Translations under genes and position numbers: made by a program
DNA from: Fluviispira vulneris
GTDB taxonomy: Bacteria > Bdellovibrionota_B > Oligoflexia > Silvanigrellales > Silvanigrellaceae
NCBI RefSeq assembly: GCF_014281055.1
Contig: NZ_JACRSE010000002.1
Span: forward strand, 372,001-436,000
Length of the DNA stretch: 64,000 bases
Reading direction: 5' to 3'
Notes under the pieces: generated by a model
What the model was told of the DNA's origin: nothing
What the model saw: only the letters and a program-made list of their open reading frames with translations
The model's database searches: none
Part shown: one piece after another, positions 17,624 through 30,266 of the stretch
How the letters are laid out: the number at the start of each line of letters is the position of its first letter
How positions within the stretch are numbered: the first letter of the stretch is position 1

Positions 17624-19363
17624 TTATATATTTAAAGCATCGATAAGAGGTGAGGAGAAAATTCTATAAGGATCGCATGCGTGTAAAATAGATGCGGCGC
17701 GTTCCCAATCCGAATTTTCAACCCCTCCGTTTTTAAATGATGAAGATATTATATTGCGGATCATATTCTTATTTCCCCAAGCAGAACTTTGATTGTAAGC
17801 CCAACCCTTTGACCATTCAACACGCACTGTGGCATAAGGCTCGCAATAATTCTTATATATCCATTCTTCTAACTCTGTATAGAAATGATTTGCAAAAGGT
17901 GTGCCAGGAATCGTTAAAACGTTTATCCAAATACCTACATCCCATTCAGGGTGGGAATCGACTCTATTAATGGCAGATAAAATTGGTGAAGTATCTTCAG
18001 AGTAACAGGCTTTGTCTAAGCCTGTTACTCTAATTTCTAATGGACCATTGATGGGATATTTGCTTTGAGATCTGTATTTTTCAATAAGATAATTATACTG
18101 TTTATATAGTTCATTTAAAACTTTTTGAATATTTTCTCTTTTTGTAATGACAACATAACCATTTGCGGTGACTTTTAGTGTAGAAGGCTTGATATATAAA
18201 AGTAAGTTTTTAGACCAACCCCATAAATCAAAGCTATTCGAATATTCTAAACCACCTGAGGTTATATAATACATTAATTTTCCAAATTGAGGAGTAATTT
18301 TAGTGTAACCAGAAATTATTGATTGTATCATATTAGACATTTTTTCATTGATATTATCTGAAAATGGATAGTTATATGGTGCATTTGTTTCGCGAGAATA
18401 TTTAGGTTTTTCCTCAGATGTAATGCTCCATACTTTTATCCAAGGTTTATCTGTAAATGGATACCAAATGATTTCCGCTCGACCAGATTTATTTATGAAA
18501 TGTGAAAAATTAAATTTTGAAGTGATTGGATCACCAAAAATTTCAGCAGCCGGAATTCCTATTATACTTTGGCAACGAATTCTCTGATTTTTTTCAACTC
18601 GCAATGTGACTTCTGTAATAAATGCTCTACCAAGATGCACAAGAAAAGCTTGGCATTGAGGGTGAGATCTATGAATTTTTTTTAAAATATATTGCGAGCT
18701 TTCATTGTCCCAAACAATTGCTGTTAAGGAATCAATCTGATTACTGAGTGAGCCAAAGTTGTTAAAAGAAGAATGACTGTCTTCATCAATAGGTGACACA
18801 GCGCTACCGTGGCCATTTATTGCTAAGACTCCCCCTAAAGTGAGTTCGCCTGGAGCAGGTAAACAGGTCAATCCGAGATCAAATTCTTCTAGTTTAGTAG
18901 TCAGAGTTTCCATCGTAATTCCAGTTTGGGCTGTGACTTGGAATGGATATTGGGATTTGTTAATTGTTACATTGTTAAGAAAAAGTTTTGTGTCAACTAA
19001 AATAACATTATTTGTGAGTTCAGTATTGTTTGCGATGGTAAGAGGAGACCAATTGTGCTGTTTTCCTTTAGGACGCACTTTATAATTATTTTTTTTCGCC
19101 CAATTAATAACCGTAACAACTTCTTCATTATTCTTTGGCGCACATGTCCATAAAGCTTTTGCTTTTAACTCGCCAGACCAATTTTCAAATTTCTCAAGAT
19201 ACACATTTATATTTTGCGGAAAATTAGGTAATGATATGGCATTTGCAAAATTTATTTTTAAAAACGGGATTGAATTTAGACCTGTCCCTATAGCGGCTGC
19301 TTTGGTAATATTTAATAAAAATTTTCTACGGGATGAAGTTAATTTTATATTTTTATTTTTCAT
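17624..19363 (-). CDS. Tat-exported FAD-linked oxidase, cholesterol-oxidase (type II) like
   Basis: 579 residues. The N-terminus SSRRKFLLNITKAAAIG is a twin-arginine export signal with a hydrophobic core. The body is a vanillyl-alcohol-oxidase-type flavoprotein: the PP-loop region VRPKGKQHNWSPLT, then the FAD segment PGELTLGGVLAINGHGSAV typical of the covalent-FAD cholesterol oxidases. A substrate-cap domain follows and a YRIF-type C-terminus closes the FAD fold. Sterol oxidation is inferred from family resemblance; other alcohols or sugar lactones are possible. Its start overlaps by 11 bp the end of a small secreted protein gene, so translation is probably coupled. Confidence 0.82.
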   Translation of the reverse strand: MKNKNIKLTSSRRKFLLNITKAAAIGTGLNSIPFLKINFANAISLPNFPQNINVYLEKFENWSGELKAKALWTCAPKNNEEVVTVINWAKKNNYKVRPKGKQHNWSPLTIANNTELTNNVILVDTKLFLNNVTINKSQYPFQVTAQTGITMETLTTKLEEFDLGLTCLPAPGELTLGGVLAINGHGSAVSPIDEDSHSSFNNFGSLSNQIDSLTAIVWDNESSQYILKKIHRSHPQCQAFLVHLGRAFITEVTLRVEKNQRIRCQSIIGIPAAEIFGDPITSKFNFSHFINKSGRAEIIWYPFTDKPWIKVWSITSEEKPKYSRETNAPYNYPFSDNINEKMSNMIQSIISGYTKITPQFGKLMYYITSGGLEYSNSFDLWGWSKNLLLYIKPSTLKVTANGYVVITKRENIQKVLNELYKQYNYLIEKYRSQSKYPINGPLEIRVTGLDKACYSEDTSPILSAINRVDSHPEWDVGIWINVLTIPGTPFANHFYTELEEWIYKNYCEPYATVRVEWSKGWAYNQSSAWGNKNMIRNIISSSFKNGGVENSDWERAASILHACDPYRIFSSPLIDALNI

Positions 19364-19888: not shown

Positions 19889-21154
19889 TTAGTCGTTTTT
19901 TTTACGAATTCCAATTATTTCAAAATTTTCATCTAGAAATTTAATCAATTCATTTGAAATTATAAAGCTAGCTAAAGAAAAAAATTCTTTTAAACATGGA
20001 TTAGTAAACTTTTCTTTTTCAATTATTTCCAATTCAAGATTATTAATTAAAGTTGAAATATGGGTTAAATGAAATTTAGATAACCAATTTTTATATTCAT
20101 GTAATATGAGTTTACCTTGGTCAGAGTTTTCACAATCCAGTAAAATTGAATTTTTATTAGATATATCATTTAAAATTCGATTAAATTCACTTTTATTTTC
20201 AAGTATATAAATGAGGCAATTTTTTCTCTGATAATCTTCCTCCATTCTTTTTTGTTCTTTTATATGCTCTGAGATATCCGATGCGCAAACAATTATTTTA
20301 TCTGGGTTTTTGTCTTTATCAAAAATTGATGAATAGGAAAGTTTAATGCTTTTCTTGCCAAAAATCTCAACTACTTTTGGGAGAGTTTGTAATACTGTAT
20401 TTATTTCCAAAATATTATCAAAAAATTGTTTAATACTTAGTATGAATATTTCTGATTTATTCATTTGAATTTGTTTGCAAATATTTTCTATTTTTTTAGA
20501 GGCAATATTTTGATCAAAAATAAAGTAGCAGGACTTGGAAACAATATCACTGATAACTAAGTTTTTGTTGATAATGAAATATGCATCTTGTATATTATCT
20601 AGAATTTCATTCACTTTTGCTTTTTCATTTTGATAATTTAATTCTGAAAAAGTATAATAAGTATTTAAAGTAAAATATATTTCAGCAAATAATAAGTTAT
20701 TTGTTATAGTCTGATATTCATACAATTGAATAGGATCTTTAAAGTGATTGGCCCATAATCGATTTAAAATTGTATTTAAATTACCGATTGAGGCCATATA
20801 AATATCTTTTGGTATCAATCTTATATAATGTAAATATCCAATTTTCAGTTTCTTTGTATAATATTCTCTATCAAATGGACCTGAAAAAATATATGGAAAA
20901 TAATCTTGATTTATTTTCATCAGGTGCTCAATTTCACCTTGGTCAATAAAATACTTTCTAGATTTTTCATTATTTATGTTAAAATCATAGAATTCATTGA
21001 TAATAGATTGGATATTTTGCTTAATAAGTGTATGCAATGAATAAGCTTTTATCTTAGTGTTTGCATCTATTCCGAAGGAAGCTTCTAGTGCGGCTATGTC
21101 ATTTTCTTTGAAGAAATCTATAGCAAAGTCATTAAAAATGACAGTATTTATCAT
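19889..21154 (-). CDS. Globin-coupled sensor: protoglobin plus PAS-like region, no classical output domain
   Basis: 421 residues from ATG 21154, chosen because GGAGGA lies about 9 nt upstream; an earlier in-frame ATG at 21175 has none. The N-terminal ~160 residues match the sensor-globin pattern, with the proximal-histidine block KIGYLHYIRLIPKDIYMAS. A PAS-like segment follows (ILDNIQDAYFIINKNLVISDIV...). The last ~90 residues include LILHEYKNWLSKF and HISTLINNLELE, reminiscent of a degenerate HPt (HTLKGN) helix pair. There is no methyl-accepting, GGDEF or kinase domain. It is the last gene of the chemosensory cluster, 54 bp after cheV. Likely a haem O2 sensor acting through CheA partners (inference). 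Confidence 0.8.
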   Translation of the reverse strand: MINTVIFNDFAIDFFKENDIAALEASFGIDANTKIKAYSLHTLIKQNIQSIINEFYDFNINNEKSRKYFIDQGEIEHLMKINQDYFPYIFSGPFDREYYTKKLKIGYLHYIRLIPKDIYMASIGNLNTILNRLWANHFKDPIQLYEYQTITNNLLFAEIYFTLNTYYTFSELNYQNEKAKVNEILDNIQDAYFIINKNLVISDIVSKSCYFIFDQNIASKKIENICKQIQMNKSEIFILSIKQFFDNILEINTVLQTLPKVVEIFGKKSIKLSYSSIFDKDKNPDKIIVCASDISEHIKEQKRMEEDYQRKNCLIYILENKSEFNRILNDISNKNSILLDCENSDQGKLILHEYKNWLSKFHLTHISTLINNLELEIIEKEKFTNPCLKEFFSLASFIISNELIKFLDENFEIIGIRKKND

Positions 21155-21208
21155 ATTATAAAATCCTCCAAACATTAAAAAAACTTTTTTTAAAATCAGA
21201 AAATAGGC

Positions 21209-22132
21209 TTATTTTTTATTGATAAAAATATTAATAATTGCTTCCATAAGATTTTTTTCTTCAAATTTTTCTAGAAAAATTCCGAGTTTTTCGTTCTGCA
21301 AATCTCTTCCAAGATTTTCATTTGAAATTGTTGTATGAAATATCACTGGAGCTGATTGTGTTTTATTAAGCTTCTTATACTCTCGAATCATATCGATTCC
21401 ATTCATATAAGGCATTTCAATGTCAGAAATAATCAAATCATATTTATCTTGATTTTTAATTAATAAATCTAAACCATCTTTCCCATTTTTTGCTAAATCC
21501 GTTTCTATTTCATATTTCTCCATAAGTCTTTTTAATAGGAGCTGATAAACAGAAGAATCTTCTACAATAAGTGCTCTTTTATCTGAGAAATTATAATCGG
21601 TGACTTTTTCTTTTTCTACTTCTCCAGGGCTAAAGCCGAATGATATAATGTATTTCTCTATATCGAAAATATATCGATAGCATTCTTTCTCCTTAATAAG
21701 TCCGCTGACAAAAAGATCTTTGTTTTGTTCCCAAATTTGAGGTGGAGGTAAGATATTTTCATTTTTTTGCATCTGTATTTTTTTAGTTTGATCTACTATA
21801 ATTCCTACATATATATTTAATATATTGCATATTATTATTCTTTTTTTCGATTTTCTTATTTTTTTTATTTTTGGCGTCTCATTAGAATAATTTTTAATAT
21901 CACTTGAATTTTGTAAATGCAGTATTTCCAATACAGGAACAGGTATAGAATTCAAATCAACAATAAATTTAAATGGCTTGATATCAGCTGGAATTTGAGT
22001 AAATTTGTCGAGTTCTATTACTGAGTAAATTTTTTGAACATTTAAGCAAAAATTAATCTCATAATTTTCATTAATGATTGAAAATGGTAATATTATTATA
22101 TTTTTATCTTCGTTGATATTTTTTTCATTCAT
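21209..22132 (-). CDS. cheV: CheV-type coupling protein (CheW domain plus receiver)
   Basis: 307 residues. Residues 10-165 are a CheW-like domain, with the conserved VPVLEI strand and IIVDQTKKI. Residues 184-307 are a receiver with acceptor Asp 237 in IISDIEMPYMNG and the EDS acidic pocket. CheV proteins couple receptors to CheA and tune activity when phosphorylated. The start overlaps cheW's end by 4 bp (ATGA arrangement), so the two are translationally coupled. With no CheB or CheR nearby, this receiver is a good candidate for adaptation. Confidence 0.9.
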   Translation of the reverse strand: MNEKNINEDKNIIILPFSIINENYEINFCLNVQKIYSVIELDKFTQIPADIKPFKFIVDLNSIPVPVLEILHLQNSSDIKNYSNETPKIKKIRKSKKRIIICNILNIYVGIIVDQTKKIQMQKNENILPPPQIWEQNKDLFVSGLIKEKECYRYIFDIEKYIISFGFSPGEVEKEKVTDYNFSDKRALIVEDSSVYQLLLKRLMEKYEIETDLAKNGKDGLDLLIKNQDKYDLIISDIEMPYMNGIDMIREYKKLNKTQSAPVIFHTTISNENLGRDLQNEKLGIFLEKFEEKNLMEAIINIFINKK

Positions 22133-22596
22133 ATTAACGATCTCATTAAATTGTTGAATTCCTCTTCGTCTAAAAAATATGTTGGTACATTATTTAAATT
22201 GATTATTTGCCCTGGAATTAAAGCGTTTTTTTCATATAGATGCTTTTGAACTTTATCGCATTTTAAAGTAAATAAGTTGTTATTTGAAAATGCTATAGCA
22301 ACTATCTTTTCTTTGTCTTTTTTCTTTTTCTTTTTACATTCTTCAATTTCTATTACTGGTAGTATTTTTCCTCTAATATTTATAATTCCTAAATGATTTT
22401 TTATTTTCTCTGGATAAGGGGCAATTTCGATAGCATCGACTATCTCATGTACATGCTTTATATCTAGAGCGTAATGCATATTATTAATACTTATTTTTAC
22501 GAGTGTGCAATACTCTATTGTTGACACTTCATTCTGTATTTTCAAACTTGTCAATGATGTATTTTGATTTGAAAATAGTTTATTTATATTATTCAT
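22129..22596 (-). CDS. cheW: CheW coupling protein
   Basis: 155 residues of a single CheW domain: YCTLVKISINNMHYALDIKHVHEIVDA, LGIINIRGKILPVIEIEE, and the second barrel AIAFSNNNLFTLKCDKV. It links receptor hairpin tips to the P5 domain of CheA. A lysine-rich run KKKKKDKEK sits in a surface loop. The gene overlaps the 3' end of cheA by 8 bp and the start of cheV by 4 bp, an ordinary tight chemotaxis operon. Confidence 0.92.
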   Translation of the reverse strand: MNNINKLFSNQNTSLTSLKIQNEVSTIEYCTLVKISINNMHYALDIKHVHEIVDAIEIAPYPEKIKNHLGIINIRGKILPVIEIEECKKKKKKDKEKIVAIAFSNNNLFTLKCDKVQKHLYEKNALIPGQIINLNNVPTYFLDEEEFNNLMRSLI

Positions 22597-24313
22597 TTTG
22601 ACACCATTGGCCTAAATTTTTGCCAAAAGACTTTTTTGTGATTCTATCGCATAATTTAGTGAGTGAAATAACAAAGGTAGACTCCCCTGTAGCCAAGATA
22701 GAAACACCAGAAATATATGGTAGTTCAGGAGAAATTGATGGATATTCTTTCACGACAATTTCTGCATTCGAGATAAACTCACCTACTTGAACAGCAGCAA
22801 TTTTTCCAGCGTAGCTTATAATGCATAAAGGAATTTTTTCTTTATAATTGAATATTTCTTTGTCTTTTTTTAAGTGACTATATAAATAATCTTCTATATT
22901 AAAGCATTTAATAAAATCATTTCCACGTTTATAATAGGACTCACTTCCATTTTTCACGATTTCATTTGGTAAAACATTTTTAAGCTCAAATACATCATTA
23001 TTTAAAATAGCAAATTGATAACCATTTGCTTTGGCTATTATCACAGGTACAACAGACATTCCAAGAGGCAATCTTAAAATAAAATCTGTTCCCCTATTAA
23101 TTTCAGTTTTTATTGAGAGATTGCCACCTAGGCTTTCAACATAGCTTTTAACAGCTTCGAGTCCTATTCCTCTTCCTGAAATATCGCTGATCTTTTCTGC
23201 TGTACTGAATCCTGGTAAAAATATTAAATTTAATATTTCATCTTTAGAAGAAATATTTTTAACATCCATTCCTTTCTTAATTGCAGAATTTAAGACTTTT
23301 TGTTCATCAATTCCTCTTCCATCGTCGCTGACTTTTATAATTGCTTCATTTGCAATAATTTGCACAGATAGCTTTATAATTGCTTTGGGTGGCTTATTTA
23401 AAGATTTACGCTCTACAATTGTTTCAATGCCATGATCCATTGCATTTCTTGTTAAGTGAATAAGAGGTTCTGCTAAGGAATCAAGTATTTTCTTATCAAT
23501 TTCTATATCTTCACCATCGATTTGTACGATGATTTCTTTATCATTATGCTCATCTAAATAACTTCTAACAGCTTTTTCCATTCTCCGTAAAAGTGTTTTG
23601 ATTGGCATCATTCGCATAGACAACGCTATTTGTTCAAGTTCGCCAATGCATTTGCGAAGAGAGTTATCTAAAAAATCCCAGTTTTGAAAAAAAGAATCAC
23701 TCTCTATTTTTTTCAAATAATGCAGATCTACTAGGTATTTCATTTGATTTCTGATTAAAAATATTTCTGATATGATATCAAAATTTTGTTGAACTTTTTC
23801 AGCTGTGACTCTTATTATTTCATTTGATGAATTTGTAGCTTTATTTTCAATTTTTTCTTTTACAGTTTTCTCTTTAGAAAAATCAATATTTTTTTCAGAA
23901 TTCAAATTATCTTGTACTTTCGGATGAGGTACTTCTTCTTGGGAGAAAATGTGAAATGTCTCATTTGAAGTGTTATCTGAAGTATTATTTATTTCAAGAT
24001 TATTGTTTATAATTTCATTCTCTAAGAAGTCTGAGTATTTGAAAATATCATCGAGTATTTTCCTAGGGATTTCGTCTTCTTTATCTTTATAAACAAGAAG
24101 ACTGCTTTCAAGTTCATGAGTAATCGATTTTATTTTAAAAAAATTGAGAGTACCGGAATTTCCTTTAATTGTATGAATTGCTCTCAAAATATCTTGAAAC
24201 CTTTCTTGTTTATTCGATGATTCTTGAAAATTTTCAAGTTTTTTCCGTATCCTTTCGATTATATCCGTAGATTCTTCTATAAATGTTTGGAGCAATTCGT
24301 CTTTAAAATCCAT
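22589..24313 (-). CDS. cheA: Chemotaxis histidine kinase CheA
   Basis: 574 residues. The P1 HPt domain has phospho-His 47 in LRAIHTIKGNSG. A low-complexity linker runs from about 105 to 165 with no recognisable P2 (CheY/CheB-docking) domain. P3 dimerisation helices follow, then P4 with the N-box LTRNAMDHGIE (290 region), DDGRGID and GRGIGLEAVKSYVESLGG. P5 (about 430-574) is CheW-like. AAGGATTTGG precedes the ATG. It is transcribed after the receptor-tip and ODP genes and before cheW. No cheY, cheB or cheR is present in the window, so its phospho-acceptors are CheV and/or unlinked regulators. Confidence 0.95.
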   Translation of the reverse strand: MDFKDELLQTFIEESTDIIERIRKKLENFQESSNKQERFQDILRAIHTIKGNSGTLNFFKIKSITHELESSLLVYKDKEDEIPRKILDDIFKYSDFLENEIINNNLEINNTSDNTSNETFHIFSQEEVPHPKVQDNLNSEKNIDFSKEKTVKEKIENKATNSSNEIIRVTAEKVQQNFDIISEIFLIRNQMKYLVDLHYLKKIESDSFFQNWDFLDNSLRKCIGELEQIALSMRMMPIKTLLRRMEKAVRSYLDEHNDKEIIVQIDGEDIEIDKKILDSLAEPLIHLTRNAMDHGIETIVERKSLNKPPKAIIKLSVQIIANEAIIKVSDDGRGIDEQKVLNSAIKKGMDVKNISSKDEILNLIFLPGFSTAEKISDISGRGIGLEAVKSYVESLGGNLSIKTEINRGTDFILRLPLGMSVVPVIIAKANGYQFAILNNDVFELKNVLPNEIVKNGSESYYKRGNDFIKCFNIEDYLYSHLKKDKEIFNYKEKIPLCIISYAGKIAAVQVGEFISNAEIVVKEYPSISPELPYISGVSILATGESTFVISLTKLCDRITKKSFGKNLGQWCQNE

Positions 24314-24348
24314 TCCAAATCCTTATTTGGTTTGAATGTGTTTTAAAA

Positions 24349-24726
24349 TTAACTTACGTTTGATTGTTCTGATATTTCTTTAATTATTTCTTTAGTATTA
24401 TTAAAAAATGACTTCAATTCATCAAATCCATCTTTAAAAGAGTCAACCGCACTTTCAATATCTGAAATAGACTCCTGGGTCTTTTCTGCTAATCTTGCAA
24501 CTTCATCTGCGACAACTGCAAAGCCCTTCCCAGTTTGCCCTGCACGAACAGCTTCAATCGAAGCATTTAAAGATAAAAGATCTGTTTTAGTTGATATATC
24601 TCTGATCATAAAAATAATTTTTTCAATTTTTTCGAGAGAAATAGATAATTCATTTACATTATTAGCTGAAGCATTGAAGCTTGTTGAAATTTTATCCATT
24701 TTAGCTTTGAATAATTCATAATTCAT
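24349..24726 (-). CDS. Stand-alone methyl-accepting-protein signalling tip (soluble)
   Basis: 125 residues containing little more than the highly conserved hairpin tip of chemoreceptors: [35 protein letters not shown], flanked by about 35-residue helices. There is no membrane segment, HAMP or sensor domain. The tip is what CheA and CheW bind, so this can only be a minimal receptor that relies on other proteins for input. AGGA upstream of ATG. It lies 14 bp after the ODP gene and 35 bp before cheA. Confidence 0.9.
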
Positions 24727-24740
24727 ATAATTTTCCTCGT

Positions 24741-25475
24741 TTATTTAGTTATACCTACTTCGAGATCCTCAATCCAATCTAAGAAATTCTTTACATTTTC
24801 ACCCATGAAAACGGATCCGTGTTGTGGGCAAAGAATTTTTGGATTTAATTTGCGAACGCGATTCACCCATTTATTTTTAGCTTTATTAGATGGCATCCAG
24901 CGTTGATGGAATTTTTCCATATATTTTATATGTTCTTTAAAATCCTCTACTATAATTGGATAACTGAGCGGCACAAGTGCTGCACCCATATCACCTGTGA
25001 AGAGGATTTTTGCGGTCGGATCGTAGAAGTGAAAGTTACCAGAAGAATGGCAATAGTGAGCCGGTATAAATTCATATTTATTACTACCCAATTCTATAGT
25101 CGCACCTTCATCTGCTAAATGTTCAAAGTTTTTAAAATATTCGCAACCAAAGTGAGATATAAATCCTGACCACAACCAAGAAAGGTATATTTTTGCATCT
25201 GGTGTTATTCCTAGCCATAATGGTAAGGATGACATTATATCAGGATCTTGATGACTGCATAAATACGCTTTAATATTTTTAATATCAACTGTTTCTGACA
25301 CCGATGTTAAAACAGAAGGGAATATTTCAATTCCGCCTGGATCAAGCAAAATTGACTCATTTCCTGAACTCACAAGATATTCATTAGTATCGATTACGTT
25401 GTTATTTTTATCAGGGTCTCTTCCAAACATGATCCACTTACTATTATTTTCATCATGTAATACTGTTCTAAGCAT
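24741..25475 (-). CDS. Di-iron metallo-beta-lactamase-fold protein (ODP family, flavodiiron core without flavodoxin)
   Basis: 244 residues. The fold and ligands match the di-iron domain of flavodiiron proteins: [12 protein letters not shown] (His 75, Asp 77, Asp 79), [11 protein letters not shown] (His 143), [10 protein letters not shown] (Asp 162) and CPQHGSVF (His 219). The flavodoxin domain of full-length flavodiiron proteins is absent. Stand-alone ODP proteins linked to chemotaxis genes are established as O2/Fe sensors in Treponema, so this is likely an oxygen sensor acting on CheA through receptor-like partners. GGTGG precedes the ATG. Neighbours 14-15 bp away on both sides are receptor-tip fragments. 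Confidence 0.9.
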
Positions 25476-25490
25476 TGTTAATCCACCATG

Positions 25491-26123
25491 CTAAAGTGAT
25501 TTAATGAGTCTGCATATTTTCTTTAAAATTAAAAATAATTTTTCTATACAATAAATACTGCTTTCAAATGAGTTATTTAAATTATCAGATAATGCTGATA
25601 TTGCTGTTTTTTGATTGCCATCTAAGTTGATCGATTCAATAATTAAACTATTATAAGCTCCAAAAAGTTTGTATTGAATCTGTAATATACATTTTAAAAT
25701 TGCTTTAGCAGGATAAATATGGTTAGAAATTTTTTTAATATCACTTTTCCAGTTTAATTCAATTGCTTTGGACTTTTTTTGTAAATAGTTTAAATTTGAT
25801 TTATTTTTTATGATGCTAATTGCTCCAGATAATTTACAATCAAGAGAATTTGAGGATAAAACTTTTAAAGTAAAGTTAAATATTGAATTAATTTCAAATC
25901 TACTTTTTTCAATAAAATTCTTCATTTTTTTTGATGAGTAAGCGATTTGATTTGAAATTTCGGTATAAATTCGAATGGATTTTCCAGTTTGGGCAGCAGT
26001 TACTGCTGCATTCATTGCAATTTCATTCAAATTCTCAGCTTCTTTATCAAGTTGGTTGAATTCTTGTCTAAGCTCTCCAAGAATATTAAATAATTTTTTT
26101 AACTGCTCTTGATTGTTATTCAT
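25491..26123 (-). CDS. Degenerate chemoreceptor-tip-like helical protein
   Basis: About 210 residues, all helical, soluble. Residues near 30-75 (LNEIAMNAAVTAAQTGKS...EISNQIAYSSKKMKNFI) align with the receptor tip consensus LNAxIEAARAGExGxGFxVVAxEV, but key residues (Arg, Glu, GFAVVA) are lost. The remaining helices have no recognised domain. The start is taken at ATG 26123, which has GGAT upstream; an in-frame ATG at 26132 is also possible. It lies 15 bp before the ODP gene. It may be a structural partner that holds the ODP or pairs with the intact tip (inference). Confidence 0.7.
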   Translation of the reverse strand: MNNNQEQLKKLFNILGELRQEFNQLDKEAENLNEIAMNAAVTAAQTGKSIRIYTEISNQIAYSSKKMKNFIEKSRFEINSIFNFTLKVLSSNSLDCKLSGAISIIKNKSNLNYLQKKSKAIELNWKSDIKKISNHIYPAKAILKCILQIQYKLFGAYNSLIIESINLDGNQKTAISALSDNLNNSFESSIYCIEKLFLILKKICRLIKSL

Positions 26124-26223
26124 TGTTATCATCCATAAATTTATAAATTCATTGATATTATAAATTTAAAGAAATGATTTGGAGTGAATATTGATTCCTA
26201 TTAGTCAAAAAAATGTTCTTTTT

Positions 26224-26847
26224 TTACATTCCATTTGGAAAGTTCTTTAAATCAATCACTCCGCTTTCTCGTACATGTTTTAACGCTGCTGAATATGCTA
26301 AAAATATTTTTGTTGTGTGCTCAATTCTTTTTCTTAAAGTTGCATCGGTTGGATTTTCAGCTTCCGAGTGATTTAATACATTCTGACAATCACGAACAAT
26401 AAGATGTTCAGGTATATAGCATATTCTAGAATTTTTAGAAGAATTCATTCTTAGTTCTGCTATGGGATAGCTCCCACCCATTCCTGCAGAAACGGAGACT
26501 AACAAACCTGCTTTGTGACCAATTTCATGAGCAGAGCAAAGCAATAAGAAATTTTTAACTCCAGAGGGAGTCATACCGTGCCACTCTGGTGTTACTATGA
26601 CAATTCCATCTGCTGATATTAATTTATTAGAAATAGGTTCCCAAATCTCTTTCCATTTTTTATTGTTTCCAATTAAATATTGATCGTCTAAGAGTGGTAT
26701 TGGATTATTTGCTAGCGAAATAATATCAACATTTGATGCTTTGTGTTGATTGATAAAAACAGACTTTAAATATTTAGAAATTTTTTCAGACTGCGATTTT
26801 TCTCGATGACTACCAGATAATATTATTATGTTCATTTTTTTGCCCAT
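26224..26847 (-). CDS. NADPH-dependent FMN reductase-family flavoprotein
   Basis: 207 residues with a flavodoxin-like fold. The phosphate-binding loop SGSHREKSQS starts at residue 11. TPEWHGMTPSGVKNFLLLCS near 85 and SVSAGMGGSYPIAELR follow, as in NAD(P)H:FMN reductases/quinone reductases. It is the first gene of the chemosensory cluster, 79 bp downstream of flgL and 91 bp before the next gene. The adjacent ODP lacks the flavodoxin domain that normally feeds its di-iron site, so this protein may supply electrons or act as a redox sensor (inference). Either ATG 26847 or ATG 26835 could be the start; neither has a strong ribosome-binding site. Confidence 0.86.
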   Translation of the reverse strand: MGKKMNIIILSGSHREKSQSEKISKYLKSVFINQHKASNVDIISLANNPIPLLDDQYLIGNNKKWKEIWEPISNKLISADGIVIVTPEWHGMTPSGVKNFLLLCSAHEIGHKAGLLVSVSAGMGGSYPIAELRMNSSKNSRICYIPEHLIVRDCQNVLNHSEAENPTDATLRKRIEHTTKIFLAYSAALKHVRESGVIDLKNFPNGM

Positions 26848-26926: not shown

Positions 26927-27835
26927 CTATTTTAAAAATTCAAGTAAGGATGGAGTAAGCATTTTTGAACTGGCTTGTAAAGTAAAGTTTACTGCACTTT
27001 CTACTCTTTTTAAGTCAAGCGCTGATTTCACCATATCAGCACCTTCAATATTATTTGTATCATTATGTAATTGTGACTCTCCTCTATCAAGACGTTCTGC
27101 AACATCTTCTAAAGCAACTCTTCTAGCTCCTAAAGAGGCTGTGGTTGTTATAACTGAATTCATAACGCTATCAAGATCGACCATAGATTGGTGGAGTTTA
27201 TCTCTGTCCCAATAGAACAAAGATTCATACATATTTTGCAAAATACTTACTAAAGGGGGACGTTTCCCTTCAAGTTCTGCAGGTACATCAAAAACATCTC
27301 TTCCATTTACATTAATAGGGCGAAAGCTATCTTCATCTACTTGCACAAAAATAAATCCATCGTCTCCTAGATAATGCCCATCAGGTGAAATTGGTGGTTG
27401 TGTTGTTTGAAACCCCCCAAATACATATTTATCGCTATAGGAAGTGTTACCTAAAATAATAACATGATTTAATATTTGCTTTATTTCTGCAGCAACCGCT
27501 TTACGAGATGGATCATCATATGTGCTGTTCGACTGTTGGATGGCGAGTTCTTTTGCTCGGATAAGCGAATTGTATATTGAAGAAAGAGCATCTTCTGTTT
27601 TTGATAAATATCCTCTTCCAAAATCCAAAGTCTTTCTAAATTGATCTAAATTTGTAATTCTATTTCTATTTCTCAAAACGCGAATTGTCCCAACAGGATC
27701 ATCGCTTATTCTTTTTAATTTTCTTCCCGATGCTGCTGTTTCATTTACATCATCGGCAATAGCTTTTACATTCCCAATTCTGTCATTTGTCACGCCGTAT
27801 CGATACATTTCTGAAATTCTAGGTTGAAGTGCCAT
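26927..27835 (-). CDS. flgL: Flagellar hook-filament junction protein FlgL
   Basis: 302 residues, related to flagellin at both ends. The N-terminal helix region SGRKLKRISDDPVGTIRVLRNRNRI and the C-terminal helix SALDLKRVESAVNFTLQASSKML are the classical D0/D1 segments. KYVFGGFQTTQPP is a typical FlgL strand. It caps the hook-filament junction with FlgK, exported by the flagellar type III system. It follows flgK by 24 bp. Confidence 0.95.
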   Translation of the reverse strand: MALQPRISEMYRYGVTNDRIGNVKAIADDVNETAASGRKLKRISDDPVGTIRVLRNRNRITNLDQFRKTLDFGRGYLSKTEDALSSIYNSLIRAKELAIQQSNSTYDDPSRKAVAAEIKQILNHVIILGNTSYSDKYVFGGFQTTQPPISPDGHYLGDDGFIFVQVDEDSFRPINVNGRDVFDVPAELEGKRPPLVSILQNMYESLFYWDRDKLHQSMVDLDSVMNSVITTTASLGARRVALEDVAERLDRGESQLHNDTNNIEGADMVKSALDLKRVESAVNFTLQASSKMLTPSLLEFLK

Positions 27836-27859
27836 AACACCTCCTCAAAAAATTATCTG

Positions 27860-29287
27860 TTACCTCTTTAGATCAAGCACAGTCTTAAACATTTCATCTG
27901 CAGTCGTTATGACTCGTGAACTGGCTGTAAATAAATGTTGGTACTTTAATAAATTCGCTGCTTCATCATCTAAGGAAACACCAGAGACACTTTCTCGCTG
28001 CGATTTTAGTCGATCATAAACAATTTGTGATGACGTAGCTTCTTCTTTTGTACGTAAAGCAGCAATTCCAATTTTACTGATCATTTTATCGTAAATACCG
28101 GTTATTGTTGTTGTGTTATTATCAAAAAGTGGTTCATAAAACAATTTAATAAGTTGATTTGCCACAACGTTGTCGCCAGGTGTGTCAGCTGACATTGCAA
28201 TTCCAACTGCATTGGGGTTAAACACAATGCCTAAGTCCACTTCAAGATCTTGGGCAGGTTCTCCTGGGCCATTTAAGCCAGCAAAAAAATCTCTTCCATT
28301 TAAATTGTGCATATCATTTATGCCAAATCCTTTGCGATGAACTTCATTAAAATTGTCAGCAAATCCTTTTGCAAGTTCATTGAGATCGTCTCTTACCCGT
28401 TGAGCATAACGATCACGTATATCAAGCAAAGCTCCCATTTTTCCTTTTGAAATAAAATCTGTCATTTCAAAGAAGCGTTCTTTTTCAAATTCAGAAATTA
28501 AAATAGCTGGCATATGAGTTGGTGTATATACATCTTCAATTTTAAAACGTGAAGCTAAATTTCCTTCAACAAGCAAACACTCAGCGGGGCCACGGACAGT
28601 TATTTGATCATTTTTGTCATGATAAGCATTGATATCAACTATACTGCCTATTTCTTTTATAAGTTTATCCCGGCGATCCTCTAAGTCATTTACATCTGTT
28701 AAGTTACCAGCGCCCATTTCTCTTATTTGGCCATTGAGCTTGGCAACTTCGGCAATTTTTTGATTTACTACAGAAATAGTTTGTTTTAATTCTTCATTTG
28801 CATCTGTTTGTACTTGCACAATATTTGCATGCGCGGCATTAAATGCTTGTGCGAGTGATTTTCCATTTTCAATCATATTGATTCTGACCGAAGGTTCTTC
28901 TGGGAAATTTGCAAGTTCTCGGATTGAACTCATAAAACTCACAAATCGATCGCGAACGGTTGAGGTTAAATCTGGATTAAAAAAACTTTCAATTTTCTTT
29001 AATCCCTCAGCGAGGACTTCTGTTTTACTTTGTATTTGCACTTCTCTGCGTAATTGTCCCTCAATAAATTTATCATGGGCACGTTGAATCGATTGAATTC
29101 GGGCGCCATCACCAAAAACATGAAGTCCGTATTCAATAGGCCACTTTGTTTCTAAGTTAACAAGCTGTCTGCTGTATCCTGGAGTTTGTGCATTGGAAAT
29201 ATTATGACCAGTTACGTCAACTCCTGTGCGTGAATTTTGCAGAGATTCACTGCCTAAATTAAGGATGTGGTTTAGTGTTGCTACCAT
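27860..29287 (-). CDS. flgK: Flagellar hook-associated protein FlgK
   Basis: 475 residues. The N-terminal NSRTGVDVTGHNISNAQTPGYSRQ is the conserved rod/hook signature. A helical D1 segment follows, with LNGQIREMGAGNLTDVNDLEDRRDKLIKEI. The C-terminal SLDDEAANLLKYQHLFTASSRVITTADEM is the family signature. It forms the hook-filament junction. It starts 1 bp after the flgN-like gene and precedes flgL. Confidence 0.96.
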   Translation of the reverse strand: MVATLNHILNLGSESLQNSRTGVDVTGHNISNAQTPGYSRQLVNLETKWPIEYGLHVFGDGARIQSIQRAHDKFIEGQLRREVQIQSKTEVLAEGLKKIESFFNPDLTSTVRDRFVSFMSSIRELANFPEEPSVRINMIENGKSLAQAFNAAHANIVQVQTDANEELKQTISVVNQKIAEVAKLNGQIREMGAGNLTDVNDLEDRRDKLIKEIGSIVDINAYHDKNDQITVRGPAECLLVEGNLASRFKIEDVYTPTHMPAILISEFEKERFFEMTDFISKGKMGALLDIRDRYAQRVRDDLNELAKGFADNFNEVHRKGFGINDMHNLNGRDFFAGLNGPGEPAQDLEVDLGIVFNPNAVGIAMSADTPGDNVVANQLIKLFYEPLFDNNTTTITGIYDKMISKIGIAALRTKEEATSSQIVYDRLKSQRESVSGVSLDDEAANLLKYQHLFTASSRVITTADEMFKTVLDLKR

Positions 29288-29288
29288 A

Positions 29289-29867
29289 TTATGCTTTCAC
29301 ACGTACAGACGAGAAATTATTACTTTGATGCTTGAGTGATTGTGCTTTGCCTAATGAATCATAATTCATTCCAACTTCAGCCTCGGATTGAAACAGACTC
29401 AATGAAAGTGAAACATTCCTTTGTAATTTTTTTAAAACGACTTGATTTCGATATATTCTTGGATAAATAACTTCAAATTGATTTTCGAATTCTTCTTTTA
29501 TTTTAAAAAACTGTATTTCAAGATCTTTCAACTTCTCATAAGTTTCTGGACTGATAAGAGATTGAATATTTTTTGTATACGTTGAAAATGCTTGAGCAAA
29601 AAGATTCAGGGATAAATTATGACCTCGACTGTCAAAAGCAATCATGTAACATATTTTTTTTAAAGTAATAACTCTTTTTTCTTCAAGAGATTGAGAAATT
29701 CTCGAGTGTTGATCTTTTATTATTATAATTTTTTCTAATTCAGATAAATCATATTTACGAATAGCTGATTCTTCCTCATCTAAAATAGGTACAATTTCGC
29801 CAAATATTAATATTTGCTTCTTTAATATATCGTTAAATTGAGCTATCAAAGATAATAGTTCTTCCAT
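29289..29867 (-). CDS. flgN: FlgN-like flagellar export chaperone
   Basis: 192-residue, almost wholly helical coiled protein. FlgN proteins are poorly conserved, and the call rests on helical pattern plus position between flgM and flgK. The N-terminal LLSLIAQFNDILKKQILIFGEIVPILDEEESAIR fits the FlgN helical hairpin. It would escort FlgK and FlgL to the export gate. It ends 1 bp before flgK. Confidence 0.8.
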   Translation of the reverse strand: MEELLSLIAQFNDILKKQILIFGEIVPILDEEESAIRKYDLSELEKIIIIKDQHSRISQSLEEKRVITLKKICYMIAFDSRGHNLSLNLFAQAFSTYTKNIQSLISPETYEKLKDLEIQFFKIKEEFENQFEVIYPRIYRNQVVLKKLQRNVSLSLSLFQSEAEVGMNYDSLGKAQSLKHQSNNFSSVRVKA

Positions 29868-29897
29868 ATTTATGTCACTTTATTAATATGTGTGATA

Positions 29898-30266
29898 TTA
29901 TCCAAAAATTATGCTTGGATCTTTTGCTAATTCATCCCGAATAGCTTCCCTTAAAATCCCATCAGCAATTTTTCCTGAATCAGGTTTATATTCACCTTTA
30001 TTGATCTGTTCTTTGAACTGTGCCACTTTATCTTCACGAACATCTGGAGTTTCTTCAACAATTTTCTTAGCCATGCTCAATTCTTTAGCGCGTGGTGAAA
30101 TTTGTACATTTGCTGCATCTTTAATGCTCGGAGCATCTTTTACCTTAGCGTAGTTTGCTTGTGCAGAATTTTTGGGCGCAGCTTTTTCGGCTTTAGCTGC
30201 TTCTGGAGCAGCGACTGCATTGGGGTTTGTGATCACTCCCGAACCTTTTACTGTATTTACACTCAT
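29898..30266 (-). CDS. flgM: Anti-sigma-28 factor FlgM
   Basis: 122 residues. The C-terminal half carries the FlgM pattern: VQISPRAKELSMAKKIVEETPDVREDKVAQFKEQINKGEY and DSGKIADGILREAI. The N-terminal half is Ala/Lys-rich and probably disordered. It would hold FliA until the hook is complete and then be exported. AAAGGAGAG precedes the ATG. It is the first gene of flgM-flgN-flgK-flgL. Confidence 0.93.
   Translation of the reverse strand: MSVNTVKGSGVITNPNAVAAPEAAKAEKAAPKNSAQANYAKVKDAPSIKDAANVQISPRAKELSMAKKIVEETPDVREDKVAQFKEQINKGEYKPDSGKIADGILREAIRDELAKDPSIIFG

What the first reader, a model, noticed from the sequence alone, without database searches (positions are those of the whole stretch)
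19889..26847. Split, fully soluble oxygen/redox chemosensory cluster
Eight consecutive minus-strand genes encode an FMN reductase, a degenerate receptor fragment, a di-iron ODP, an isolated receptor tip, CheA, CheW, CheV and a protoglobin-PAS protein. No gene encodes a membrane receptor, CheR, CheB or CheY. Each sensing and coupling function of a normal chemoreceptor appears to be on a separate polypeptide. ODP-CheA linkage is known in Treponema; this combination with a globin and two free hairpin fragments is not one I know. Inference: an O2/redox-responsive cytoplasmic array driving the flagellum, since it lies directly behind flgM-N-K-L.
Basis: partly seen in the sequence, partly recalled or inferred. 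Interest (0 to 1): 0.9.

Follow-up and report, generated by a model that had tools for sequence, protein, structure and literature searches.

The report
Split, membrane-free oxygen-sensing chemotaxis operon
A bacterium of the Silvanigrella/Spirobacillus group carries a compact set of six genes, inherited and lost as one block, that appears to wire an iron-based oxygen sensor to its own chemotaxis kinase through two bare receptor fragments instead of an ordinary receptor, a new arrangement of a sensor already known from Treponema.

Summary
The eight genes are really there at the stated coordinates. The conserved unit, however, is six genes: degR-ODP-tip-CheA-CheW-CheV. The order is identical in four congeneric genomes, an Oligoflexales MAG, two Bacteriovoracaceae MAGs and a MAG labelled Legionella. 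One congener has lost all six in a single deletion. FMN reductase and flgM-N-K-L adjacency are not conserved; the globin gene is an optional neighbour. ODP is a true oxygen-binding di-iron protein. The tip is an intact kinase-contact hairpin with no sensor, membrane or methylation segments. The 'degenerate receptor' (degR) is two tandem decayed receptor-tip hairpins, predicted as one four-helix bundle, so a natural single-chain pseudo-dimer. It sits directly upstream of ODP throughout one ODP clade (22/22), also in Vibrio, Oceanospirillaceae, Rhodocyclaceae and Chlorobiota. The globin protein is globin-PAS-pseudo-Hpt. The genome has nine other CheAs, seven CheBs, eight CheRs and at least 30 receptors, so only this cluster is soluble and adaptation-free. 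Best reading: ODP, through degR, controls a dedicated CheA/CheW/CheV via the tip. Sensing and kinase control are inferred by homology; flagellar output is unproven. New variant of the Treponema ODP-receptor system.

The parts
25491..26132 (-). degR: 213-aa tandem of two degenerate MCP-tip hairpins (single-chain pseudo-dimer); dedicated ODP partner; first gene of the six-gene core
   Evidence: hhalign of degR family vs tip 4.8e-11, vs genome MCPs 1.4e-9, reversed/shuffled controls no better than 0.008; half 1 vs half 2 7e-6; AF2 pLDDT 91, four-helix bundle; E385 (Tsr numbering) lost in 20/20, N381 kept in 20/20
24741..25475 (-). ODP, oxygen-binding di-iron protein (MBL fold); H75, D77, D79, H140, D162, H219 as inferred iron ligands
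   Evidence: PF19583 2.6e-75; PDB ODPs 6qrq 1.9e-70 and 6qnm 1.3e-61; those residues invariant in 6 aligned ODPs
24349..24726 (-). isolated receptor tip: 125-aa kinase-contact hairpin, equivalent to about Tsr 328-452, no methylation helices
   Evidence: PF00015 2.1e-26; N381, E385, R388 kept in 8/8, N376->D 8/8 and E391->Q/K 8/8
22589..24313 (-). dedicated CheA: P1-P3-P4-P5, no recognisable P2; P1 His conserved
   Evidence: Hpt 6e-14, HATPase 3e-15; His in 8/8; 8 cassette CheAs one clade 100/100 apart from the genome's 9 other CheAs
22129..22596 (-). CheW
   Evidence: PF01584 4e-11; conserved at this place in 8 cassettes
21209..22132 (-). CheV (CheW domain plus response-regulator domain with conserved Asp and Lys); last gene of the core
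   Evidence: PF00072 3.5e-16, PF01584 2.4e-8; REC Asp and Lys in 8/8
19889..21175 (-). protoglobin-PAS-pseudo-Hpt protein, facultative neighbour
   Evidence: Protoglobin 4e-13; VIA Z 19.1 to the Geobacter globin-coupled-sensor globin 2w31; H116 invariant in 5; C-terminal half homologous to PAS-Hpt-HATPase kinases, Hpt His is H/F/H/Q/H in five
26224..26847 (-). NADPH-dependent FMN reductase-like gene; adjacent but not part of the conserved unit
   Evidence: PF03358 1.6e-21; absent from the loci of the relatives
26927..30266 (-). flgL, flgK, flgN, flgM upstream; neighbourhood found only in this genome
   Evidence: Pfam; no homologue in the 14-20 kb loci of five relatives

Best explanation
A dedicated, methylation-free, cytoplasmic chemosensory pathway with O2/iron input. 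(1) ODP binds O2 at its di-iron site (inferred from family). (2) ODP works together with degR, a single-chain four-helix bundle made of two decayed receptor tips; degR keeps the receptor fold but has lost a kinase-side contact residue, so it is an adaptor rather than a kinase-controlling receptor (fold and decay shown or predicted; binding inferred). (3) The degR-ODP state is passed to the tip, a bare but intact kinase-contact hairpin, which with CheW controls the cassette's own CheA (tip and kinase residues shown; coupling inferred). (4) CheA phosphorylates CheV's receiver domain, a likely phosphate sink or feedback since there is no methylation, and an unlinked CheY (inferred). The flagellar motor is the likeliest but unproven target. 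Together the three small proteins replace one receptor: sensor, transducer and kinase-contact tip on separate chains. In three of five cassette-bearing genomes of this genus a globin-PAS-pseudo-Hpt protein is encoded next door and may add a second, haem-based O2 input.
For: Same six genes in the same order in 8 cassettes across three families or more; near-contiguous or overlapping ORFs. Loss of all six in one deletion in G003, which leaves about 66 bp of the cheV 3' end between preserved neighbours. In 56 phylum genomes a dedicated degR occurs only in the six with ODP; next hits are ordinary MCPs at 1e-13 or weaker. All 22 ODPs with a degR upstream form one clade, 100/100. Cassette CheAs are one clade. 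ODP matches solved ODPs. Tip retains receptor contact residues with a private D376/Q391 signature. Precedent: in T. denticola ODP is coupled to a receptor lacking membrane and sensing parts that modulates CheA, and ODP loss alters CheA order (PMC7666581).
Against: No interaction or activity was measured and no complex could be predicted here. In 14 of the 22 degR-ODP loci no tip or CheA was found in the stretch held, so degR-ODP also works in some other way. No output gene lies in the cassette. The cell's nine other CheAs could share parts. Presence is patchy (6 of 58 phylum genomes), so it is dispensable.
Confidence: 0.58

Rival explanations
1. ODP acts directly on CheA or on phospho-CheA, as reported for Treponema ODP. 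degR only stabilises or localises ODP, and the tip is a constitutive CheA activator with no sensory role.
For: From memory of Muok et al. 2019 (PNAS; not held): iron-peroxo ODP destabilises phospho-CheA in reconstitution. An isolated tip with a constant sequence could simply hold CheA active. In many genomes degR-ODP occurs without a linked tip.
Against: degR is retained in every ODP of this clade, and its fold is the receptor's, which points to receptor-like signal transfer. In Treponema too ODP comes with a sensor-less receptor (PMC7666581).
Confidence: 0.22
2. The cassette proteins join an existing array (membrane or cytoplasmic) of the cell rather than form a separate one: tip, CheA, CheW and CheV are mixed in with the 30 or more other receptors and nine other CheAs.
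For: The genome has many other systems. In T. denticola the sensor-less receptor is thought to join the membrane arrays (PMC7666581). The tip is too short for a free-standing standard-length receptor layer.
Against: Dedicated CheA and CheW, a cassette CheA clade of its own, and a tip signature found in none of the 22 genome MCPs that could be anchored.
Confidence: 0.25
3. It is an alternative-function chemosensory pathway (gene expression, pili or gliding, development) and not a flagellar one.
For: No CheY, CheR, CheB or CheD in the cassette; flagellar adjacency is confined to one genome; FliG is near-universal in relatives and so uninformative.
Against: All six cassette genomes of the phylum scan have FliG; S. 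cienkowskii has a full flagellar gene set (PMC12321486); CheV is typical of taxis pathways.
Confidence: 0.3
4. A decaying remnant of an ordinary ODP receptor system.
For: The receptor is reduced to fragments and degR is degenerate; one congener has lost the block.
Against: Catalytic and contact residues are conserved in all eight cassettes; ODP is 73-77% identical across congeners; the organisation is conserved between families; degR itself is conserved across phyla.
Confidence: 0.04

Closest known systems
Treponema denticola ODP (TDE2498) with receptor TDE2496 (PMC7666581; Muok et al. 2019, PNAS)
   Same: ODP as O2/iron sensor; genetic coupling to an MCP homologue without membrane or sensing parts; effect on CheA
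   Different: There the receptor is one polypeptide and the organism's single CheA is shared. Here the receptor is split into tip plus degR, and a dedicated CheA, CheW and CheV are in the operon with no CheR/CheB.
Purely cytoplasmic chemosensory arrays: V. cholerae cluster I/F9 with DosM, Rhodobacter sphaeroides CheOp3 (PMC7534058, PMC3964821)
   Same: Membrane-free receptors with their own CheA; F9 clusters form at low oxygen; DosM carries two signalling domains in one chain
   Different: Those use long receptors with input domains. DosM's signalling domains sit at opposite ends of a rod, whereas degR's two tips should lie at the same end of one bundle and are decayed.
Engineered single-chain (tandem) Tsr receptors (PMC4692393, abstract only) and Tsr signalling fragments (Parkinson laboratory, from memory)
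   Same: Two receptor subunits in one chain; tip fragments without methylation segments that act on CheA
   Different: Laboratory constructs; the degR/tip pair would be a natural counterpart.
Globin-coupled sensors (HemAT, AfGcHK)
   Same: Globin fold and conserved proximal His
   Different: Output is PAS plus a degenerate Hpt without kinase, not MCP, GGDEF or an active kinase.

Membership tests
[quoted passage not shown]
   253 bits vs cut-off 27.2, 244 aa; best solved relatives are ODPs
[quoted passage not shown]
   HQDPD, H140, D162, H219 invariant in six sequences and aligned in solved ODPs; ligand roles inferred from the flavodiiron motif
[quoted passage not shown]
   needs purified protein
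Methyl-accepting chemotaxis protein (tip) | Kinase-contact signalling tip | tested here: met
   PF00015 2.1e-26; N381/E385/R388
Methyl-accepting chemotaxis protein (tip) | Sensor domain, membrane anchor and methylation helices | tested here: not met
   125 aa, about Tsr 328-452; no hydrophobic segment; Tsr methylation-site positions from general knowledge
Methyl-accepting chemotaxis protein (degR) | Homology to the signalling domain | tested here: met
   hhalign 1.4e-9 with failing controls; profile hits to ordinary MCPs; 8/20 members hit PF00015 below cut-off
Methyl-accepting chemotaxis protein (degR) | Conserved trimer/kinase contact glutamate E385 | tested here: not met
   0/20 degR members vs 22/22 anchored genome MCPs
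Treponema-type ODP plus sensor-less receptor pair | ODP gene next to a soluble receptor lacking a sensor | tested here: met
   ODP and tip 14 bp apart, kept in 8 cassettes
Treponema-type ODP plus sensor-less receptor pair | Full-length single-chain cytoplasmic receptor | tested here: not met
   tip 111-153 aa in cassettes versus 243-289 aa receptors next to ODP in Spirochaetota and Desulfurobacteriaceae
Purely cytoplasmic array systems (F9, CheOp3) | Double-baseplate sandwich array | not testable with these tools
   needs cryo-ET
Purely cytoplasmic array systems (F9, CheOp3) | Membership of a defined CheA class | not tested
   class reference profiles not available; only local tree
Globin-coupled sensor | Haem globin sensor domain with proximal His | tested here: met
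   Protoglobin 4e-13; fold match Z 19.1; H116 invariant in 5; haem binding itself not testable
Globin-coupled sensor | Known output (MCP, GGDEF, active kinase) | tested here: not met
   C-terminus is a degenerate Hpt-like bundle, no HATPase

The most novel reading that the evidence does not exclude
degR founds a widespread family of natural single-chain receptor-tip pseudo-dimers that act as adaptors between a diffusible metalloprotein sensor and chemosensory kinases. In this cassette a chemoreceptor is truly split into three polypeptides (sensor ODP, transducer degR, kinase-contact tip) that signal without membrane or methylation.
Probability: 0.4. Interest if true: 0.78.

Novelty: new variant of a known kind. 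Interest (0 to 1): 0.62.

Why it matters
How little of a chemoreceptor is needed to control CheA, and how soluble sensors reach the kinase, are open questions. Nature appears to supply a minimal system: a 125-residue tip, a decayed double tip, a small O2-binding protein and their own kinase, all soluble and expressible. It would be a tractable reconstitution system for receptor-kinase signalling without membrane or methylation. It also names a partner family (degR) for a whole clade of ODPs in several phyla, including Vibrio.

Tried and rejected
Pfam and NCBIfam find nothing for the window degR, so profile-profile comparison was used. Structure search of the degR model returned generic designed four-helix bundles and long coiled coils, no receptor signalling chain; since receptors are dimers, this neither supports nor refutes kinship. 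No FNR-like palindrome upstream of the cassette in window or relatives. FMN reductase and flg genes rejected as members. FliG distribution is uninformative. Active phosphotransfer by the globin protein's Hpt-like end is unlikely: His missing in 2 of 5. Literature: no description of this cassette or of degR in the held library; the key PNAS 2019 paper is not held.
Full report
WHAT IS THERE. All eight minus-strand genes exist at 19889-26847. By Pfam they are a protoglobin protein, CheV (CheW+REC), CheW, CheA (Hpt, HATPase, weak CheW-like end, no P2), a 125-aa MCP signalling fragment (PF00015, 2e-26), an ODP (PF19583, 3e-75), a 213-aa protein without a match, and an FMN reductase. Gaps between degR, ODP, tip and CheA are 15, 14 and 35 bp; CheA/CheW and CheW/CheV overlap by 8 and 4 bp; CheV to globin is 33 bp; FMN reductase to degR is 91 bp (from the coordinates). 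None has a transmembrane-like segment. flgL, K, N and M lie upstream.

THE CELL AROUND IT. The genome (3.6 Mb, 9 contigs) belongs to the genus that holds Spirobacillus cienkowskii: relative G004 contains a contig of exactly the length of the S. cienkowskii record QOVW01000060. It has at least 30 MCP signalling domains, 26 CheW-type matches, 7 CheB, 8 clear CheR and nine other CheAs in other clusters. So the claim 'no membrane receptor, CheR or CheB' holds for this cluster only.

THE REAL UNIT. Relatives' loci show degR-ODP-tip-CheA-CheW-CheV in that order in G002, G004, G006, G007 and an Oligoflexales MAG. A named-genome scan adds two Bacteriovoracaceae MAGs and a MAG labelled Legionella. The last groups with the Oligoflexales copy in both trees, so mis-binning or transfer is possible. 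FMN reductase and flagellar genes are absent from the relatives' loci. In G003, a sister of G002 with 78-97% identical flanking proteins, the six genes are missing as one block: the globin gene and the 361-aa gene are neighbours with 364 bp between them, and about 66 bp there match the 3' end of cheV. This is a single deletion. The globin gene persists in G003, lies elsewhere in G007, and adjoins the cassette in two different arrangements (downstream in the window, divergent upstream in G002 and G006). It is a recurring but optional partner.

CO-OCCURRENCE. ODP occurs in 6 of 58 phylum genomes. A search of 56 phylum genomes with the degR profile finds a dedicated degR (E below 1e-56) in exactly those six. 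The next hits, at 1e-13 or weaker, are signalling domains of ordinary MCPs, and the cassette tip itself scores 7e-12 to 3.5e-8. The eight cassette CheAs form one clade (100/100) apart from the nine other CheAs of the genome, E. coli CheA and a CheA from another phylum.

degR IS A TANDEM OF DECAYED RECEPTOR TIPS. Profile-profile comparison of the degR family with the cassette tips gives 4.8e-11 and with 28 MCPs of the genome 1.4e-9; reversed and column-shuffled controls give 0.008 or worse. The narrower Bdellovibrionota set alone is weaker (3.5e-5 against MCPs), so the case leans on the wider family. The first half matches tips at 1.9e-12, the second half at 3.6e-5, and the halves match each other at 7e-6; for the narrow set alone the second half gives no signal. 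Eight of 20 members hit PF00015 below its cut-off, best 3.3e-7. N381 (Tsr numbering) is kept in 20/20, but E385, present in all 22 anchored MCPs and all 8 tips, is lost in 20/20. AlphaFold2 gives a confident single-chain helical bundle (pLDDT 91, pTM 0.81) that superposes on designed four-helix bundles (Z 20.9, rmsd 1.7 over 183 residues). In such an up-down bundle both tip-like turns lie at one end, as in a receptor dimer (inference). Hence 'single-chain pseudo-dimer'.

degR AND ODP BELONG TOGETHER. In 22 of 22 ODPs of one clade (100/100) a degR-like gene lies directly upstream: the eight cassettes plus Vibrio tapetis and V. penaeicida, Thalassolituus/Oleibacter and other Gammaproteobacteria, Rhodocyclaceae and other Betaproteobacteria, and Chlorobiota-type genomes. 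In those 14 non-cassette loci no tip or CheA was seen in the stretch held; L078 and L080 end just after ODP. ODPs outside this clade instead adjoin 243-289-aa soluble MCPs (Spirochaetota, Desulfurobacteriaceae, Thermococcales), protoglobins (Chloroflexota) or roadblock proteins.

THE TIP. It corresponds to about Tsr 328-452 (tip residue 54 = N381), so it lacks the methylation helices, in keeping with the absence of CheR and CheB. Contact residues N381, E385 and R388 are intact in 8/8, with private changes N376->D (8/8) and E391->Q/K (8/8). No anchored genome MCP has D at 376 and one of 22 has Q at 391. This may insulate it from the other kinases (inference). CheA's P1 His and CheV's receiver Asp and Lys are conserved in 8/8.

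THE GLOBIN PROTEIN. Its globin domain matches sensor globins (Z 19.1 to 2w31), with H116 invariant in five relatives. Its C-terminal part is homologous to PAS-Hpt-HATPase kinases of other Oligoflexia but lacks the ATPase. The Hpt His is H, F, H, Q, H in the five: a pseudo-Hpt. The model is moderate (pLDDT 75).

HOW IT MOST LIKELY WORKS. In T. denticola ODP is an O2 sensor coupled to a receptor homologue lacking membrane and sensing parts that can modulate CheA, and its deletion changes CheA order in the array (PMC7666581). By homology ODP is the input here. Because degR is the obligate companion of ODP in this clade and has the receptor's fold but not its kinase-contact glutamate, I infer that it carries the ODP state to the tip, which controls the dedicated CheA with CheW. 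CheV is the only phospho-acceptor in the cassette and probably supplies feedback. Shown: gene content, order, co-inheritance, homologies, residue conservation. Predicted: degR fold. Inferred: O2 binding, degR-ODP and degR-tip contacts, kinase control, output.

KNOWN OR NEW. ODP-linked sensor-less receptors and purely cytoplasmic arrays are known (PMC7666581, PMC3964821, PMC7534058). The split of the receptor into a bare tip and a tandem pseudo-receptor, the degR family as the partner of an ODP clade, and the dedicated adaptation-free kinase operon were not found in the papers searched. I rate it a new variant of a known kind.

Noticed in passing
L126 9292-10693; L128 6111-7412; L142 6392-7575: In Chloroflexota, a stand-alone protoglobin gene (Pfam 1.4e-31 in L128) lies directly upstream of ODP; in L126 and L128 an NtrC-like response regulator follows. 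An independent globin-ODP pairing.
   Followed up: partly
L112 9618-10708; also L098, L105, L109, L120, L121: Roadblock/LC7 genes directly upstream of ODP in Thiodiazotropha, Sedimenticola and others (Robl_LC7 5e-15 in L112), suggesting that ODP also feeds small-GTPase-type switches.
   Followed up: no
L061 15879-16571; L065 3258-4118: A second metallo-beta-lactamase-fold gene (by eye ETHE1/glyoxalase-II-like) flanks the cassette in Spirobacillus and in the Oligoflexales MAG; a 59% homologue sits near the emptied locus in G003 (L226 1684-2397).
   Followed up: partly
L226 8924-9287: Deletion scar in G003: the six-gene cassette is gone between the globin-PAS gene and a 361-aa gene, leaving about 66 bp of cheV.
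   Followed up: yes
L205-L211: A family of PAS-Hpt-HATPase kinases resembling CheA P1-P4 (LHTLKGN motif), some with an N-terminal part that looks receiver-like by eye, occurs in several Oligoflexia (11 matches in G034); it is the apparent source of the globin protein's C-terminal half.
   Followed up: partly
L135 9337-14385: A complete cassette on a contig of a MAG labelled Legionella sp.; CheA and ODP group with the Oligoflexales copy, so mis-binning or horizontal transfer.
   Followed up: partly
window 17624-19363: Cholesterol-oxidase-type flavoprotein (Chol_subst-bind 1.8e-128), adjacent to the cluster on its other side.
   Followed up: no
L143-L149: In Nautiliales, Sulfurimonas, an actinobacterial MAG and a Rhodospirillaceae MAG an ODP-like domain lies in ORFs that are mostly 510-711 aa long; domain content not examined.
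   Followed up: no
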